A stretch of DNA of 29,895 nucleotides from IMG/VR virus record IMGVR_UViG_3300020735_000046, positions 1-29,895 of that record. The stretch is one strand, 5' to 3'. Below the pieces are notes generated by a model, which did not search any database, was not told where the DNA came from, and saw only the letters and a list, made by a program, of their open reading frames with translations. This DNA comes from a virus. Below, piece after piece: positions 1,457 through 20,780 of the stretch. Every line of letters begins with the position of its first letter. The stretch's first letter is position 1. A program made the translations under genes and the position numbers.

Positions 1457-1791
1457 ACATGAACGACTTGAACAGCGTGCAGTGGGGCGACACAGAGGGT
1501 TTGCAGACCTTTCTGTTGGAAAACGCCATGCAACACCAGTTGTTCAAGCGCACCCTGAGTGCCCAGAACATGAAGGTGCCGTCCTTTAATTTGTTTGACG
1601 TACAGGTTGAGAACATCGACGACTGGCTTTTGCCGCACCAGGACGAGCATCAGGTGTTTGCGTCATACCTTGGCTTGAGCAATCCCATTAACCTGCTGGA
1701 CATGAATTGGAATAATGAGGACCAGTTTTACGACTGGGTTTCGGATCATTACCAAATCCATGCCAGCATAGCGACGGCATTGGGGGTCTGA
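1453..1791 (+). CDS. conserved-looking small phage protein
   Basis: 112 residues, acidic, rich in aromatic residues and His, with no membrane segment. The second half has an H-x(2)-H-x(2)-FASYLGL pattern followed by DWVSDHYQIH, reminiscent of a small phage protein often found just before a GNAT-like gene in podovirus virion clusters; that family has no established function as far as I know. It overlaps the fibre gene by 4 bases and the following gene by 1 base, implying coupled translation. Probably a virion or assembly protein by context. Confidence 0.55.
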   Translation: MNMNDLNSVQWGDTEGLQTFLLENAMQHQLFKRTLSAQNMKVPSFNLFDVQVENIDDWLLPHQDEHQVFASYLGLSNPINLLDMNWNNEDQFYDWVSDHYQIHASIATALGV

Positions 1792-2312
1792 TGAGTCCGA
1801 CTTCACCGTTAGCGCCCGCAGCCCAGTCCATGCTTGGACAGCCTCAACAGCCGTCTACGGGCGATGTCATGCCCGCCATGAAGCAGGAAAGCGGCGAGGG
1901 CGGGGGCAAGAAAAAGCCTAGCCAGATTATTCGAGATTACGTCATTGCCACTACTGGGGATCAGAAGGCTGCTGATTACGTTTTAGCCGTCATCGGCAAG
2001 CAGGTTCAGAAGAAAGTGGCCCGCATCATTCAATTTGGCAACACTGTGTTTTGGGCGCAACAAAAGGGTCCGGGTACGGTGGATGTTCACATCTTCACCG
2101 AAGAACGTCCCCAGGCGCTCGCCAAGAGAATGAAACAGGCTTACGAGTGGGCCAAATCAAAGGGCTTTAAAACCATTACGTCAACGCTGACGGACATGGG
2201 CACGGCAAATTTGCTGAAGGCTTCCGGTCTGCCAGTGAATTTGTCCCAGACAACGATCAACGACGGACAGAAGATGGTCCCCGCTTATCAGCTAACTATG
2301 GAGGTTAAATAA
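1791..2312 (+). CDS. GNAT-like virion-cluster protein (internal virion protein A-like)
   Basis: 173 residues. The first 45 are disordered (Pro, Gln, Gly, then GGGKKKP). From about residue 60 the pattern fits a GCN5-related acetyltransferase fold: a strand with VHIFTEERP, a long helix (LAKRMKQAYEWAKSKGF), a strand ITSTLTD, a helix and a final YQLTMEVK strand. Acetyl-CoA-loop residues are not clear, so catalysis is uncertain. GNAT-like proteins occur in this position in podovirus genomes, before the ejection proteins. Coupled by TGATG-type overlap to its upstream neighbour and by TAATG to the next gene. Confidence 0.5.
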   Translation: MSPTSPLAPAAQSMLGQPQQPSTGDVMPAMKQESGEGGGKKKPSQIIRDYVIATTGDQKAADYVLAVIGKQVQKKVARIIQFGNTVFWAQQKGPGTVDVHIFTEERPQALAKRMKQAYEWAKSKGFKTITSTLTDMGTANLLKASGLPVNLSQTTINDGQKMVPAYQLTMEVK

Positions 2313-3337
2313 TGCCGCCTCTTGCTGGTATTGCCGTTGCTGCACTTGCTTCATCTACTGCGGTAGGAGCCGCCCTTGGACTGGGTGGAAGCATTGCTGC
2401 TGCCATTGGCGGGATCATTGATGCCGGTGCAATTATTGACGGTGTTGTTACGGGTGCAATTATTGGTGCCGGTGCTGGCGCTACAACTGCGGCGGCTGCG
2501 GGTGCCGATCCTGGCGAGGGCGCTTTGTGGGGCGCGGCTACGGGCGGCGTATCTGGCGGTCTGACGCCGGAAATACAGGGAATTGATCCAAGCCTTACTG
2601 CAACCGAGGCGCAATCTATTTCCAGCGGAGTCACTACGACTGGTGCCGCTTTGGCACAGGGTCAAGACATCGGCACGGCTTTGGAAAAGGGTTTGGCTGG
2701 CGGTGCGGCGACTTATGCTGGCGGTCAGCTTTTTTCTGCCCCGTCTAGTGTCAGCACAGGGGATACAGCATCGGCAACGCAAACCGCAAATGTTGGCGGA
2801 GTTCCGGGAGTCGAATCTGTTACGGTCACTCCCACTATTACCCCGACGACTGATTTATCCAGCGCCTTTGCCACGCCGGTAGAACAGGCGACTGTTACGG
2901 CTCAGAGGCCAGCAACTACGGTAGACGCAACTGCCGCTACTTCTGTTCCTACTGGAACCGAGCAGGTTACGGTTACAGCACCCAAGGAACAGGCAAATGT
3001 TGGCGCGACTGATATTATTGATTTTTTGACCAAAGACCTTCAGCGCGACCCTGGGGTTAGGACGGCTGAACGCGGTGCCCTGAAATACGGATTGCTGGAC
3101 TTTCTGTTTGGCACCGGAGGCACCTCAACCGCTGGGGCAGGTGCAGGGACCGGCGCTGGGGCGGGTTCTACAGGGCCTAGCGTGGCCGCACAGGCCGCTC
3201 AAGCCGCCCAAGTGGGTCAAACCGGGGGTACATCAATTTACGGCCCAGGGGGGCCTATTTTCGGGGAACCGGCTGGTGCTACAAAGTACAGCCCGTGGAA
3301 TGTAGCATCTCTTAGAACAGATCAAGGAAATGCCTAA
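2312..3337 (+). CDS. Gly/Ala-rich candidate internal virion (ejection) protein with TonB-box-like motifs
   Basis: 341 residues. Residues 5-80 are strongly Gly/Ala/Ile-rich with glycine-zipper spacing and could insert in a membrane. Residues 165-226 contain three related short segments: VESVTVTPT (167), VEQATVTAQRP (190) and TEQVTVTAPKE (216), spaced 23-26 residues apart. A charged piece (IIDFLTKDLQRDPGVRTAERG) and a second Gly/Ala-rich tail follow. Membrane-active, Gly/Ala-rich proteins next to large helical proteins are typical of podovirus ejection proteins. The same ESVTVTAP motif recurs in the next gene. Ejection role is inferred; I do not recognise the exact family. Confidence 0.5.
   Translation: MPPLAGIAVAALASSTAVGAALGLGGSIAAAIGGIIDAGAIIDGVVTGAIIGAGAGATTAAAAGADPGEGALWGAATGGVSGGLTPEIQGIDPSLTATEAQSISSGVTTTGAALAQGQDIGTALEKGLAGGAATYAGGQLFSAPSSVSTGDTASATQTANVGGVPGVESVTVTPTITPTTDLSSAFATPVEQATVTAQRPATTVDATAATSVPTGTEQVTVTAPKEQANVGATDIIDFLTKDLQRDPGVRTAERGALKYGLLDFLFGTGGTSTAGAGAGTGAGAGSTGPSVAAQAAQAAQVGQTGGTSIYGPGGPIFGEPAGATKYSPWNVASLRTDQGNA
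2810..2989 (+). repeat. three TonB-box-like motif repeats (protein level)
   Basis: Encodes three copies of E-[SQ]-[VA]-T-V-T-[PA] at residues 168-174, 191-197 and 217-223 of the Gly/Ala-rich protein; two are followed by QRP or PKE. Confidence 0.6.
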
Positions 3338-4455
3338 TGGCCCTGTCTAAAGCACTCAATACCGACATGTCCTCTGTGGCAAAGATGCTACGGTCAATGG
3401 GGCGTGGTCGTGACTCTATTTTGGCCCATATCACCCCGGAGGAGGCTCGGCTTCTGAAGGCCAGGGGTGGTCGCGGGTCCATTAACCCGGCCACTGGGTT
3501 GCCTGAGTTTGATGTGGAGTCGGTCACTGTTACTGCGCCGAGTACTGATTACGGCACATACATGTATGACCCGACCATTGTTTCGCCGTCTGCTCCCTCT
3601 CCAGCACCTGCTCCCGCTCCTTCAGCGCTTCCCACAGAACAGGTTGAATCAACCGGAACCAGGGCACCCTCTACGGACGCGGGTACGTTTATGTACGATC
3701 CCGGAATTATTCAGGCCCCTGCTCCGCAGCCGGTTGTCGCTCAGACGCTCGCCCCTGCACCGGCAGCGCCTCAGCCCCTTGCGGCTGCCCAAGCCGCAAC
3801 AATACCGTCAGAAAGCGTCGTTGTTAGCGGTGAAAGAGCTGCGACTGCTGCCATGCCGGATTATGCGTCCTTTATGGTTCCTGACACTGTTCAGACGCCG
3901 ACGCAGGAACCGTCCCTTGATAAGCAAGCCAAGTCATTTCTTGGCAATAACTCTACCCTTCTGAGCATCCTTGGTCTGGGCGGCATGGGTCTGCTTGGCA
4001 GCAGCAACCTTGGCGGCGGTCAGGGTGCCCAACTTCAAAGCCAGCTTGCTTCCTTGGCGCAGCCCACTCAGGCGCTTGGAAATGCCACCTTGGCGACCAC
4101 TATGGCGGGCGGTCTTACCCCGCAGAACGCCCAGGTTCTCCAGGCTACTGAGGCCCAGATTGCGGCATCTCAGGCCAGAGGTGCGGTATCGTCTGCCCAG
4201 GCGGCGGAAGCCATTTCCCAGACTTATGCCGGGTTGCTTCAGAACCAGCTTACAACGGCTATCAGTTTGTTGAATACGGCAGATAGCTACCTGCAACAGG
4301 CTTACGTCCAAGGTTATAACGCCAATGTGGCCAACCAGACGGCTACATCTAATTTCTATTCTACTATGGCGCAGTTGGCGGCTCGGCTGAGCGGTATTGG
4401 CGGTGGCGGTACGACGATTAATCTGCCCGCCGGTTCTACGGTTTCGGGAAATTAA
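3337..4455 (+). CDS. candidate internal virion protein with three TonB-box-like/YD repeats
   Basis: 372 residues. It begins MALSKALNTDM, very like the next protein (MALADTLKTDM). Residues 60-185 carry three imperfect units: ESVTVTAPSTDYGTYMYDP (61), EQVESTGTRAPSTDAGTFMY (101) and ESVVVSGERA followed by PDYASFMVPD (159), separated by Pro/Ala linkers. Residues 210-245 are Gly/Leu-rich and hydrophobic (LSILGLGGMGLLGSSNLGGG). The last 130 residues are Gln/Ala-rich and helical, ending in a Gly/Thr tail. Placement between other ejection-type genes suggests an internal virion protein. The motif resembles TonB boxes of outer-membrane transporters, discussed in the findings. Confidence 0.5.
   Translation: MALSKALNTDMSSVAKMLRSMGRGRDSILAHITPEEARLLKARGGRGSINPATGLPEFDVESVTVTAPSTDYGTYMYDPTIVSPSAPSPAPAPAPSALPTEQVESTGTRAPSTDAGTFMYDPGIIQAPAPQPVVAQTLAPAPAAPQPLAAAQAATIPSESVVVSGERAATAAMPDYASFMVPDTVQTPTQEPSLDKQAKSFLGNNSTLLSILGLGGMGLLGSSNLGGGQGAQLQSQLASLAQPTQALGNATLATTMAGGLTPQNAQVLQATEAQIAASQARGAVSSAQAAEAISQTYAGLLQNQLTTAISLLNTADSYLQQAYVQGYNANVANQTATSNFYSTMAQLAARLSGIGGGGTTINLPAGSTVSGN
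3514..3891 (+). repeat. three imperfect 25-28-residue repeats with TonB-box-like core
   Basis: Protein units at residues 60-82, 100-125 and 158-185: E-[SQ]-V-x-[VS]-[TS]-[AG], then R/A/P/S, then a D/Y-x-G/A-T/S-Y/F-M segment with DP or PD. Spacing is about 40 and 58 residues because of Pro/Ala linkers. Confidence 0.6.
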
Positions 4456-4457
4456 TC

Positions 4458-5867
4458 ATGGCTCTTGCAGACACTCTCAAGACGGACATGGGCAAACCTC
4501 CGGTTACGGAAAAGCCCGCCGCCGTCAAGCCTAGCACTGATCTTATTGGACAGCTTCAGCCTGGATACGAAGAACTTAAAAAAAGGGCCGCTGATTACGA
4601 AGCCAAAACAAAGGCAGCAGGAGAGGCGGAAGTTAAGCAGAGGGAAATGCTTCCATCCGCATTAAAACAATACGATGTTGAAGAACGTGCTCAGCGAAAA
4701 CCCCTTGAAGAAGGGCTGACTTTTAAACCAGATATGAGCTACATGCGCGATGTCAGCAATCTTTTTATGATTGTTGGCATGTTGGGCGCGTTTATTGGCG
4801 GAAAGGGTAGCACATCTGCCGCAGCCAATTCTCAGGCCGCTTTGACCGGAATGATGCAGGGCCTTGTGAAAGGCGATGACGCGGAGTACGCGAGGCAAAA
4901 GGCGGTTTTTGATGAAAACTCAAAATATCTGTCCAAGCAGGTAGAGGACATTAAAGAAGCGTTTAAGCAACACCGCGAAGACGCCATTAAGAATGGTATT
5001 GCATACGGAGACAGCGAATTGTCTCAGGCATTTAATGCCTCCGGCGCCGATTCCTTCAAGGCATTAAACGATGCCAAGGGGTCGAAGGCCGCTTTTGATG
5101 CCTTTAAAAGCGTCAATGATACTCACGACAAAATGATTGAAACCGCTACGCGCCTAGAAGAACAAAAGCGCCGTGACACTCAGGCTGAACTTGATCGAAG
5201 GGAGGCTCGCGCCGAAAGAATGGCAATGTTTGCGGAACGTCAGAAGGGTGGTCGCGCTTCCGTTCTTTTGCAGGGTCGCGCGGAAAACATCCGCGAGGCT
5301 ATTACCCAAGTTGCCGCTGACGTTAAGAACATTTCCAAGTTTCCCAAAGGCACGGTTCTTAGCGCTTTCTCTGGTATGACCGGGCAAGAGGGTGACACCC
5401 TTTACAGGAGCCTTTCCAATACGTTTGCGCGGGCAGTTTCTGACAAGGAAAGCCGCATGTTGCAGCAGCTTGTTTCCGGCCTTGAGCAAAACATGGCGTC
5501 CGCTCTTGGTGGTGGTTATGCTACATCTATCGCCAAGGGCAGAGTCGAAGCCTACAAGGCGCAGGTTCCAAAGGCGGGCGACAGCGCTGAAATTGCGGCA
5601 AACTTCTTGGCCAGAGTGCGCCAAGAGATGAACATTTTGGCTGAAAATTTCCCCACCAAGCCGGGTGCAACCGAGGGGATGGTTAAAGCGGTCGAAAAGG
5701 CCAATAACGACATCAATGAAGCCGTTCCGTTCACGGTTGACGACGTTTTGGAAGCCACTTTTAACAAGGGCGGAAAGCCAATTCCAACGGCTGAAGACCG
5801 TAAAAGGGGTCAATCAAACCCCACTTCTAGGCAAAACTTCATCCGTCATTTTGGAGTTGAACCGTAA
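4458..5867 (+). CDS. large helical candidate internal virion (ejection) protein
   Basis: 469 residues, mostly charged and predicted helical, with coiled-coil-like stretches at about 35-90 and 205-265. One hydrophobic segment (NLFMIVGMLGAFIGG, residues 101-115) could cross or enter a membrane. The N terminus MALADTLKTDM matches that of the preceding protein. No catalytic motif seen. Size, helicity, a single hydrophobic patch and position after the fibre and before lysis genes fit podovirus ejection proteins. Start lies 2 bases after the previous stop; the end overlaps the next gene in TAATG. Family-level identity is not recognised. Confidence 0.55.
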   Translation: MALADTLKTDMGKPPVTEKPAAVKPSTDLIGQLQPGYEELKKRAADYEAKTKAAGEAEVKQREMLPSALKQYDVEERAQRKPLEEGLTFKPDMSYMRDVSNLFMIVGMLGAFIGGKGSTSAAANSQAALTGMMQGLVKGDDAEYARQKAVFDENSKYLSKQVEDIKEAFKQHREDAIKNGIAYGDSELSQAFNASGADSFKALNDAKGSKAAFDAFKSVNDTHDKMIETATRLEEQKRRDTQAELDRREARAERMAMFAERQKGGRASVLLQGRAENIREAITQVAADVKNISKFPKGTVLSAFSGMTGQEGDTLYRSLSNTFARAVSDKESRMLQQLVSGLEQNMASALGGGYATSIAKGRVEAYKAQVPKAGDSAEIAANFLARVRQEMNILAENFPTKPGATEGMVKAVEKANNDINEAVPFTVDDVLEATFNKGGKPIPTAEDRKRGQSNPTSRQNFIRHFGVEP

Positions 5868-7339
5868 TGGCAGACAAGATTCCAAATTGGGACAAACCAC
5901 CTGGTCAGGAAAAAAACATCCCGGATTGGGATAAGTCCACCGCCCCCCAAGAAAAATCGGTTTTTGGGGGCGGCGGGCTTGCCATGAAAGATTTTGAGGA
6001 AGCCAGAAAAAGACCGTCCGGTCTGGGGGCTTTTTCCTATGGACTGGGAACTGGAACTTTGGGTGCTATGGGCGATATAGAACAACTTATAACTCAAACG
6101 GCACCTCGCGCACTGGGTAAGGCTTTTCCCGAAACTATGGGGTCCGTTGGTCGTAAAGGACTTTATGACGCTTCTACGGTTTTGGGTGGAACGGATAAGA
6201 CGTTTCTGCCGACAACCGAAATGATCCGGCAGAACGCAGAAGAACTTGGAATCCCCCGTCCTTCAAAAGACGTATCCGGTTATCAAACTGCCGGTGAAAT
6301 TGCGCCAGCGCTTTTTGCACTTCCCACGCTAGCAAAAACGCTTGTTGGAGAAACGGGAAGAATTGGCGAAGAACTAGCCAGATCAGCAGAAAAGATGGGA
6401 TTCAAGCTGTCTGCGCCACAGGTCGCCAGAGAGGCACCTACGGTTCAGCGCGGCGCTGCTGGGTATTCCAAGGCAAACCAGAAACTTGCCAATCGGAAAG
6501 CGGCAGATGCTACCGGAAAGTCGGCTGACGAAGTTGACGAGGCATTTATTCGTGGGCGCATCAAAGACCTTGGAAGTCAATTTGATAAAATCTATCAGGG
6601 CAAGCAATTCAAAATTGACCAACCCGCTATAAACGCTATTGCTCAAATTTCGGCTAATGAGGCGGCTGCGGTTGGTCCTTCCGGCGTTTCCGTTGTGAAG
6701 TCTGCCGCTGATGACATTCTTCGTGCTTATCAATCCCTTGCCGCAAGTCCGGGTGCCGCACCAAAAACGTTTTCTATTGCCGGTGAAGGTTTGCAAAGGC
6801 TTCGCAATGCTCTTTCGGCCAAGGGTGCGTCAGCTTCTGGTCAGGCAAAGCATGAAATCTATAATTTGATTGATGAAATTGATTCGAGCGTTGCCCGCAA
6901 TCAACCAAAGATTGCAAAAGAGTTAAATGATATTCGGACTAAGTACCGCGCCTCCGTTATTCTTGAAGACTTGACGCAAAGAGGCGGTATTGATCGTGGC
7001 GACATCAGCCTGAATAGGCTTGGTGAAATGCTTCGCGGCACGTCCATTCGACGCCGGGAAGAACAACTAATTGATGAACTTGGCAAGATCGGAAAGGGCA
7101 CAAATCTTATCGCTCTTTGGGAAACTCCTGGACGGGGAATTTCCGAGGGGGCGGAAGCTGCCAAATCCCTTGCTGATGCGCTTGGTGTCAGTTCTCTTGG
7201 CCGGATAGTAACATCTCCCCTTCGGACGCGGGCGGCGCGGGCTATCCAGCGGGCTTTGTCAGGCACGAAAACTGGCCCTGCCGCAAAAATCATGCCCGCA
7301 GCCACGGCTGCCCGTACTGTAAATCCAGAGGAACAGTAA
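5867..7339 (+). CDS. large candidate internal virion (ejection) protein
   Basis: 490 residues. The N terminus has a doubled short motif, KIPNWDKPP (residues 4-12) and NIPDWDKST (residues 17-25). A Gly-rich region at about 50-70 (LGAFSYGLGTGTLGAMG) may be membrane-active. The rest is helical and charged, with Ala-rich stretches, and there is no obvious lytic transglycosylase signature. Coupled to both neighbours by TAATG. Best read as the last of a set of DNA-ejection proteins; an alternative is another minor virion component. Confidence 0.55.
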   Translation: MADKIPNWDKPPGQEKNIPDWDKSTAPQEKSVFGGGGLAMKDFEEARKRPSGLGAFSYGLGTGTLGAMGDIEQLITQTAPRALGKAFPETMGSVGRKGLYDASTVLGGTDKTFLPTTEMIRQNAEELGIPRPSKDVSGYQTAGEIAPALFALPTLAKTLVGETGRIGEELARSAEKMGFKLSAPQVAREAPTVQRGAAGYSKANQKLANRKAADATGKSADEVDEAFIRGRIKDLGSQFDKIYQGKQFKIDQPAINAIAQISANEAAAVGPSGVSVVKSAADDILRAYQSLAASPGAAPKTFSIAGEGLQRLRNALSAKGASASGQAKHEIYNLIDEIDSSVARNQPKIAKELNDIRTKYRASVILEDLTQRGGIDRGDISLNRLGEMLRGTSIRRREEQLIDELGKIGKGTNLIALWETPGRGISEGAEAAKSLADALGVSSLGRIVTSPLRTRAARAIQRALSGTKTGPAAKIMPAATAARTVNPEEQ

Positions 7340-19627: not shown

Positions 19628-19894
19628 ATGGGTTCTGAGATAGAGTTGGTTGTTCGTGGGATTTACGCGCCTGTATTGGCGGCGAGTCCTGGTGGTCCGA
19701 AGGTTTTTTACGATCAGTTGCCTTTGGAGGCGCGTGGGTTCTTGGAGGATCAGGCGCGGAGTGGTTTGCAGCGGTTACGGGATGGGGTGACGCCTGGGAT
19801 GTTGGCGGCTGCGGATGGGTTGGAGGATGCGGAGAGTATCTTCTGTGCGATGCTGGACCATGTTCTGAAGAAGGTGTCTTCCAATGGAATTTAA
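19628..19894 (+). CDS. small unknown protein before the radical SAM gene
   Basis: 88 residues from ATG 19628, eight bases after AGGGG (a GTG at 19610 is the alternative). MGSEIELVVRGIYAPVLAA then helical segments FYDQLPLEARGFLEDQARSGL and ADGLEDAESIFCAMLDHVLKK. The DNA is notably G/T-rich on this strand (45 of 60 bases in 19621-19680), unlike its neighbours. It overlaps the next gene by 11 bases, so it is likely part of the sugar/radical SAM unit. No family recognised. Confidence 0.55.
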   Translation: MGSEIELVVRGIYAPVLAASPGGPKVFYDQLPLEARGFLEDQARSGLQRLRDGVTPGMLAAADGLEDAESIFCAMLDHVLKKVSSNGI

Positions 19895-20780
19895 GGATGC
19901 GGTGGGCCGGATGCGCGGTCCTCGGAACATGCACATCATCTGCATCGACGTGACCAACAAATGTGACCTGGCGTGTAGTAACTGCACCCGGTTGCTGGCG
20001 AACCAGGATGGGTTATGGGAGATGACGCCGGAGAACTTCCGGTTGGCGCTTCAAAGCCTGAAGGATTATTTTGGGATCATTGCCATGATTGGTGGCAATC
20101 CCTGTATGCATTCCCGGTTTGAGGAGTTGTGCCAGATATTCGAGGAAGAAATCCCGAACCCGCTTCAAAGAGGGCTTTGGACCAACAACCCGTTCAAGCA
20201 TGAGTTGCTGGCCATCAAGACGTTTGGGACATACAACCTCAATGCTCATGGCGAGGAACGGGCTTATCCCGCACTTGCGAACATCACCCAGTTGGCCAAG
20301 GACAACGGGAAGGTGGTGTGGACCTATATGGGCAATTCCATCCATGCCCCTTTGCTGACCGCCATCAAGGACATCTATGCCGAGGGCGAGATGTGGGAAA
20401 AGATTAGCAAGTGCGAGATTAACCGCGACTGGTCAGCTTCCATTGTACAGAATAAAAATGGGGAATTGCGGGCTTACTTCTGTGAGGTCGCAGCCTCGTT
20501 TGACATGGCGCGGGGCGGGGATCATGGGCACCCGGTAGAACCTGGCTGGTGGCAAAAACACATCGACGAGTTCTCGGACCAGATTAAGCATTTCTGCCCA
20601 GGGTGCGGCGTACCGGCCAAGCTGAAGGGGACCAAGGATTCTGAGGAAAAGGACACCTACACTCGGTCCAATGCCGACATTGCCCTGAAGCAGAAGGGGC
20701 GTCATGCCCAAGTTCTTCTGAAGCCTGAGTTTGATAACCCCCAGCACCGGATTACCCAGTACGGGGAGATTGTTTCGTGA
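19884..20780 (+). CDS. radical SAM enzyme with extra C-terminal Cys cluster
   Basis: 298 residues. CDLACSNC gives the C27-x3-C31-x2-C34 ligands for the 4Fe-4S cluster that cleaves S-adenosylmethionine; GGNP at 70-73 stands where GGEP binds SAM. Later Cys at 177, 200 (RAYFCEV) and the CPGC pair at 238/241 resemble a SPASM/twitch-type auxiliary cluster site. Enzymes of this type modify peptides or sugars by radical chemistry. It is coupled to the GT2 glycosyltransferase (ATG overlap of 4 bases), so it may act on a sugar-bearing or protein substrate with it. Substrate unknown. Confidence 0.8.
   Translation: MEFKDAVGRMRGPRNMHIICIDVTNKCDLACSNCTRLLANQDGLWEMTPENFRLALQSLKDYFGIIAMIGGNPCMHSRFEELCQIFEEEIPNPLQRGLWTNNPFKHELLAIKTFGTYNLNAHGEERAYPALANITQLAKDNGKVVWTYMGNSIHAPLLTAIKDIYAEGEMWEKISKCEINRDWSASIVQNKNGELRAYFCEVAASFDMARGGDHGHPVEPGWWQKHIDEFSDQIKHFCPGCGVPAKLKGTKDSEEKDTYTRSNADIALKQKGRHAQVLLKPEFDNPQHRITQYGEIVS

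What the first reader, a model, noticed from the sequence alone, without database searches (positions are those of the whole stretch)
2810..3891. TonB-box-like repeats in two candidate ejection proteins
Adjacent virion-type proteins carry six copies of E-[SQ]-[VA]-x-[VS]-[TS]-[APG]: ESVTVTPT, EQATVTAQRP, EQVTVTAPKE, ESVTVTAPS, EQVESTGTRAP and ESVVVSGERA. These look like TonB boxes of outer-membrane transporters, especially alphaproteobacterial ones with cores such as VVTAQRR or VVTGTR. If real, a protein reaching the periplasm could engage TonB to aid DNA or protein entry, as colicins do. Low-complexity linker or fibre-type repeats are an alternative.
Basis: partly seen in the sequence, partly recalled or inferred. 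Interest (0 to 1): 0.75.

Follow-up and report, generated by a model that had tools for sequence, protein, structure and literature searches.

The report
TonB-box-like repeats in phage ejection proteins
Two neighbouring proteins of an uncultured phage, probably ones injected into the host, carry floppy linkers with five good and one degenerate copy of a short tag resembling the handle by which Gram-negative bacteria's TonB motor pulls cargo inward, which suggests but does not prove that the phage borrows that motor during infection.

Summary
The six segments are real, in frame, and not chance. They lie in Pro/Thr-rich linkers that AlphaFold leaves unstructured, between a glycine-zipper helical part and a conserved tail (ORF1), or between a conserved N-domain and long helices (ORF2). 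A matrix trained only on TonB boxes of bacterial TonB-dependent transporters scores five copies inside the transporter range; the sixth (EQVESTGTRAP) fails. In 80 phage loci collected without regard to the motif, motif-like sites concentrate in the ORF1 position (12 of 78 proteins, 19 hits, 2.5 expected) and almost nowhere else. A sister phage with a 90% identical capsid keeps three TonB-box-like copies with different wording (TLPEVEVTAERE); another sister has none. A related pattern, LP[ED]VxVTA, marks TonB boxes in bacterial genomes, and in viral contigs it turns up in linkers of baseplate hubs, spikes, tape measures and DNA-transfer proteins. Binding to TonB is untested, the host is unknown, most homologues lack the motif, and the bare core also occurs in beta-rich phage proteins. 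Verdict: observation confirmed; TonB mimicry is the best single explanation, about 0.5.

The parts
2312..3337 (+). ORF1, 341 aa: glycine-zipper helical N-part, P/T-rich linker with three motif copies, conserved C-tail WNxxSLR
   Evidence: (Gly-zipper E=3e-4, below cut-off)
2441..2563 (+). Glycine-zipper / confident helices of ORF1 (aa 44-84)
2813..2833 (+). copy 1 ESVTVTP
   Evidence: score 9.3
2882..2902 (+). copy 2 EQATVTA(QRP)
   Evidence: 10.9
2960..2980 (+). copy 3 EQVTVTA(PKE)
   Evidence: 11.2
3281..3334 (+). Conserved ORF1 C-tail SPWNVASLRTDQG; W, N, S and L invariant in 19 homologues
3337..4455 (+). ORF2, 372 aa: conserved N-domain, Pro-rich linker with three repeat units, long helical C-part
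3337..3513 (+). ORF2 N-domain (GRGRDSILAHITPEEARLLKARGGRGSINPATGLPEF), found in at least 537 viral stretches
3517..3537 (+). copy 4 ESVTVTA(PS)
   Evidence: 14.3
3541..3573 (+). companion element STDYGTYMYDP after copy 4
3637..3657 (+). copy 5 EQVESTG(TRAP), degenerate
   Evidence: 2.7
3670..3702 (+). companion element STDAGTFMYDP after copy 5
3811..3831 (+). copy 6 ESVVVSG(ERA)
   Evidence: 10.4
3856..3882 (+). companion element PDYASFMVP after copy 6 (diverged)
4012..4389 (+). Confident helices of ORF2 (aa 226-351); weak Foldseek similarity to viral proteins, a few named internal virion protein
5867..7339 (+). ORF4, DNA ejection protein homologue (phrog_26400); no motif; context for the ejection block

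Best explanation
ORF1 and ORF2 are most likely ejected (internal virion) proteins of a podovirus-like phage whose disordered linkers carry TonB-box mimics. After the virion opens, the proteins pass into the periplasm. One of the linker motifs adds as a beta-strand to the TonB C-terminal domain, as the boxes of transporters and group B colicins do, and the ExbBD-driven motor then pulls, anchors or orients the ejected proteins, helping the translocation path for protein or DNA to form. Several copies per linker would raise the chance of capture. Shown here: the motif, its non-randomness, its linker position, its match to transporter boxes, and its recurrence in ejection-type proteins. Inferred: ejection, TonB binding, and any benefit to infection.
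For: Motif present and non-random. Five of six copies score 9.3-14.3 on a matrix from 36 transporter TonB boxes (leave-one-out range 3.6-27.7), with no hit of 8 or more in any other window protein. All copies fall in stretches modelled without secondary structure and with low pLDDT. In loci collected without regard to the motif the regex gives 19 hits in 12 of 78 ORF1-position proteins (2.5 expected) against 5 hits in 909 other proteins; with the matrix at 10 or more it is 14 hits against 3.2. Wording changes while the grammar stays: MW202825, capsid 90% identical, has TLPEVEVTA[ED][RS]E three times in ORF1; L014 has DVGEITVTAxK, L066 xAGxVTVTGKPD. L009 carries the class in both ORFs. LP[ED]VxVTA hits in bacterial genomes include about 15 transporter N-termini just after the signal peptide, whereas in viral contigs they fall in hubs, a spike, tape measures and a DNA-transfer protein; the last is shared by L160 and MW202867, 63% identical (score 23.1). 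Mapped bacteriocin boxes lie in disordered regions and read EETLTVV or ETLTVH (PMC10906532).
Against: No direct binding evidence. Most ORF1 homologues (66 of 78) and sister phage MW202753 lack it, so it is not essential. The other 81 ORF2 homologues have no regex hit and no matrix hit of 10 or more. One window copy is degenerate and the L009 copies carry Pro in the strand. The exact core ExVTVTAP in viral contigs is mostly found in beta-rich proteins such as spikes, so the core alone is not diagnostic. Hub relatives in Burkholderia and Bordetella phages have no motif. Window copies score in the lower part of the transporter range. Host unknown.
Confidence: 0.48

Rival explanations
1. The motif is a virion-internal short linear motif: the segments add as beta-strands to another phage protein (tail, portal or partner ejection protein) to pack or tether the disordered linkers. 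Similarity to TonB boxes is convergence on a generic beta-augmentation peptide.
For: Two neighbouring proteins of the same phage share it, as co-packaged partners might; in ORF2 it belongs to a longer repeat with STDYGTYMYDP; similar cores occur in beta-rich phage proteins.
Against: Absent from a sister phage whose capsid is 90% identical; flanking preferences (acidic residue one or two places before the core, R/K after) follow transporter boxes; it recurs in unrelated virion proteins (hub, tape measure, DNA-transfer protein) that share no obvious phage partner.
Confidence: 0.25
2. Low-complexity linker: Pro/Thr/Ala/Val-rich repeats that only space domains, with no specific partner; the similarity reflects composition.
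For: The linkers are compositionally biased and vary in length; most homologues have no motif.
Against: Composition-preserving shuffles do not reproduce it; protein-level conservation between copies with different codons; the reversed-motif control in viral contigs finds far fewer real genes, 12/121 against 31/117, p=0.0012.
Confidence: 0.15
3. Ejected decoy: the multiple boxes occupy TonB at the entry site and so block TonB-dependent uptake, competing phages or colicins (superinfection exclusion), rather than powering entry.
For: Multivalent copies; the consensus pentapeptide is reported to inhibit TonB-dependent processes in vivo (Tuckman and Osburne 1992, title as listed in PMC7142613); phages do exclude rivals at transporters, e.g. 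T5 Llp on FhuA (PMC9586334).
Against: A virion would deliver few copies compared with cellular TonB (general knowledge); the same class in hub and tape-measure proteins argues for an entry role.
Confidence: 0.08

Closest known systems
TonB box of TonB-dependent outer-membrane transporters (BtuB, FhuA and similar; plug domain PF07715)
   Same: Core V/I-x-V-T/S-A/G preceded by E/D and often followed by R/K; disordered, periplasm-facing segment
   Different: Here no signal peptide, plug or barrel; several copies in internal linkers of virion-type proteins; binding untested
TonB boxes of group B colicins and klebicins (ColM ETLTVH, KlebE EETLTVV)
   Same: A foreign protein entering from outside that carries E-T/S-hydrophobic-x-V in a disordered region
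   Different: Bacteriocins carry one box near the N-terminus in a released toxin; here three per protein in putative phage ejection proteins
Internal virion / ejection proteins of podoviruses (P22 gp7, gp20, gp16; T7 gp14-16)
   Same: Gene position beside DNA ejection homologue ORF4, helical and glycine-zipper parts
   Different: ORF1 and ORF2 match no such family by sequence; no TonB-type motif is described for them in the literature searched

Membership tests
TonB box | Sequence consensus (E/D, hydrophobic, x, V, T/S, A/G) | tested here: met
   Five of six copies score 9.3-14.3 on a transporter-trained matrix; the sixth fails at 2.7
TonB box | Lies in a disordered, accessible segment | tested here: met
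   All six in coil with low pLDDT in the ORF1 and ORF2 models; models are of low overall confidence
TonB box | Reaches the periplasm | not testable with these tools
   Only synteny with a DNA ejection homologue and weak fold hits
TonB box | Binds the TonB C-terminal domain; function lost in tonB/exbB mutants or on Pro substitution | not testable with these tools
   Complex prediction and experiments not available
TonB-dependent transporter | Signal peptide, plug domain and beta-barrel | tested here: not met
   No Pfam plug or barrel hit; models show helices and coil
TonB-dependent bacteriocin | Toxin domain with receptor-binding region and N-terminal box | tested here: not met
   No toxin family hit; genes lie in a phage structural block
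Podoviral ejection (internal virion) protein | Sequence match to a known ejection family | tested here: inconclusive
   ORF4 matches phrog_26400; ORF1/ORF2 have no hit; relatives L014 and L036 (phrog_167 tape measure) and L005 (phrog_342 internal virion protein) give weak hits at E about 3e-4 to 1e-3

The most novel reading that the evidence does not exclude
Many tailed phages of Gram-negative hosts place TonB-box mimics, worded like those of their hosts, in the linkers of the proteins that first enter the periplasm (ejection proteins, baseplate hubs, spikes, tape measures), so that the Ton motor takes a direct part in phage entry independently of the receptor used.
Probability: 0.3. Interest if true: 0.85.

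Novelty: new variant of a known kind. Interest (0 to 1): 0.62.

Why it matters
How tailed phages power the first steps of protein and DNA entry across the outer membrane and periplasm is an open question, and TonB dependence of some phages is usually ascribed to the receptor alone. A TonB box on the ejected protein itself would link phage entry to the colicin import mechanism, give a sequence signature for hunting it, and make a directly testable prediction: infection should depend on TonB even when the receptor is not a TonB-dependent transporter. Literature searches here found no report of TonB boxes in phage ejection, hub or tape-measure proteins.

Tried and rejected
Close relatives of ORF2 (whole) and ORF3 in viral contigs: none; the single ORF1 hit, L002, is weak and probably spurious. 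ORF2 N-domain in 399 genomes of the order of G010: no match, and no positive control, so uninformative. Hub family phrog_196 in 100 genomes: one hit, not pursued. Pattern [ED]xVTVTAP in viral contigs: 21 of 120 in frame, mostly beta-rich proteins and no ORF1 relatives; kept as negative evidence on specificity. Hub relatives with known hosts (Magia, BgManors32, IFTN9) and DNA-transfer relatives (PfAn1, CRP-901): no motif. Foldseek against PDB: nothing significant. Alphaproteobacterial origin of the wording: not favoured, since E-S-V-x-V resembles the E. coli/colicin grammar. Transporter gene capture: rejected, no plug homology. L239, which I first took for a relative of ORF4, has no significant BLASTP match to it, so its function is not assigned.

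Full report
What is there. The window is a 29,895-base virus record with terminase, portal, major capsid protein, RecE/RecT-type recombination genes, GTA-type holin and GH108 endolysin. The finding lies in two adjacent genes: ORF1 (2312-3337, 341 aa) and ORF2 (3337-4455, 372 aa), followed by ORF3 and by ORF4, which matches a DNA ejection protein family (phrog_26400, E=4.7e-7). Shuffles of the two proteins never reach three copies in 20,000 trials, and the copies use different codons for the same residues.

Anatomy. ORF1 has a glycine-zipper, confidently helical N-part, a linker of variable length, and a C-tail with invariant W, N, S and L in 19 homologues. ORF2 has an N-domain that is very common in viral contigs (at least 537 stretches), a Pro-rich linker, and long helices. 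All six motif copies fall in linker coil of low pLDDT; both models are of low overall confidence, so this is supportive only. In ORF2 each copy is followed by a second repeated element, STDYGTYMYDP, STDAGTFMYDP and PDYASFMVP, found in no other ORF2 examined. So the ORF2 repeat unit is more than a TonB box.

Homologues. Eighty loci collected by the ORF2 N-domain alone, plus four annotated phage loci, give a sample not chosen for the motif. [VIL]x[VI][TS][AG]x[RK] occurs 19 times in 12 of 78 proteins at the ORF1 position (2.5 expected from shuffles), not at all in the 81 other ORF2s, and 5 times in 909 proteins of all categories other than ORF1. These loci include near duplicates, so the counts are not fully independent. 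The motif bearers differ in wording: TLPEVEVTAERE (L005), DVGEITVTANKD (L014), xAGxVTVTGKPD (L066), ASVTVTGTRLP (L074), NVETVPVSGT (L009). The window's capsid protein is 90% identical to those of MW202825 (=L005) and MW202753 (=L003). The first has three copies in ORF1 and none in ORF2; the second has none. The linker is thus a fast-changing element in which the grammar is kept in some phages and lost in others. In L009 the class appears in both ORFs, including IETISSTG at the site homologous to window copy 4, with drift that may weaken strand pairing.

Is it the TonB box? In bacterial genomes a scan for LP[ED]VxVTA gave 49 in-frame hits, of which about 15 are transporter N-termini directly after the signal peptide. 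From ten such genomes I took further transporters by the plug family and built a matrix from 36 boxes not selected by that pattern. These boxes were still located by their core, so core positions are partly ascertained; flank preferences are not. Leave-one-out scores run from 3.6 to 27.7. Window copies score 9.3, 10.9, 11.2, 14.3, 2.7 and 10.4. At a threshold of 10, ORF1-position proteins give 14 hits (3.2 by shuffle), the other ORF2s none, and the remaining window proteins none. The other proteins of the loci give some single hits, part of them in beta-rich repeats. Mapped bacteriocin boxes, ETLTVH (ColM) and EETLTVV (KlebE, where L6 and V8 matter most), lie in disordered regions (PMC10906532), and the consensus pentapeptide is given as ETVIV (PMC7142613). 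Window ESVTV, EQVTV and ESVVV fit this grammar.

Beyond this family. The forward hits include baseplate hubs (phrog_196 for L094, L139, L155, L165, L240; the first two found by the companion pattern or the raw list), a tape measure (phrog_9483, L162), a DNA-transfer protein (phrog_770/6704, L160) whose relative in MW202867 keeps the motif (score 23.1), and by inspection a spike (L129) and Mu-type hubs (L235, L247). Eight hubs that are 18-51% identical to each other carry it at positions 7 to 128, as a movable short motif would. These proteins were found by the motif, so this shows recurrence, not frequency; cultivated hub relatives from Burkholderia and Bordetella lack it. As a counterweight, [ED]xVTVTAP in viral contigs hit mostly beta-rich proteins and no ORF1 relatives, so the bare core is not diagnostic without its linker context.

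Mechanism and verdict. The most economical account is that ejected proteins expose TonB boxes in the periplasm and are captured by TonB. Shown: motif, non-randomness, context, match to transporter boxes, recurrence. Not shown: ejection, binding, role in infection. A virion-internal strand-addition motif is the main rival. I rate TonB engagement at about 0.5 and the wider claim, a general entry device, at 0.3. No paper found here describes it, but the library holds only open-licence papers.

Noticed in passing
window 3541-3573, 3670-3702, 3856-3882: Second repeated element in ORF2 (STDYGTYMYDP, STDAGTFMYDP, PDYASFMVP), one after each motif copy; no counterpart in the other ORF2 homologues examined.
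   Followed up: partly
L094, L139, L155, L157, L165, L199, L230, L240, L235, L247: Baseplate hub proteins with LP[ED]VxVTA in N-terminal or linker regions, in Pro/Thr-rich context; absent from cultivated hub relatives.
   Followed up: partly
L147 and L162: Tape-measure-like proteins with LPEVxVTAP near the C-terminus.
   Followed up: partly
L557:7794-10262 (MW202867) and L160:3215-5578: Putative transglycosylase / DNA-transfer protein with SLPEVVVTA near the N-terminus in two phages 63% identical there.
   Followed up: partly
window 1791-2312: Small protein next to ORF1 with sub-threshold similarity to autoinducer synthase/GNAT; an acetyltransferase gene is also annotated beside the ejection genes in PfAn1 and CRP-901.
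   Followed up: no
window 3337-3513 and at least 537 viral stretches: Very common phage N-domain GRGxDTxLAHITPxEAxLLKxxGGSGTINPxTGLPEF; the window's ORF2 that carries it has no Pfam or PHROG hit.
   Followed up: no
window 19884-20780: Weak radical SAM similarity (phrog_13987, E=7e-5) upstream of the terminase gene.
   Followed up: no
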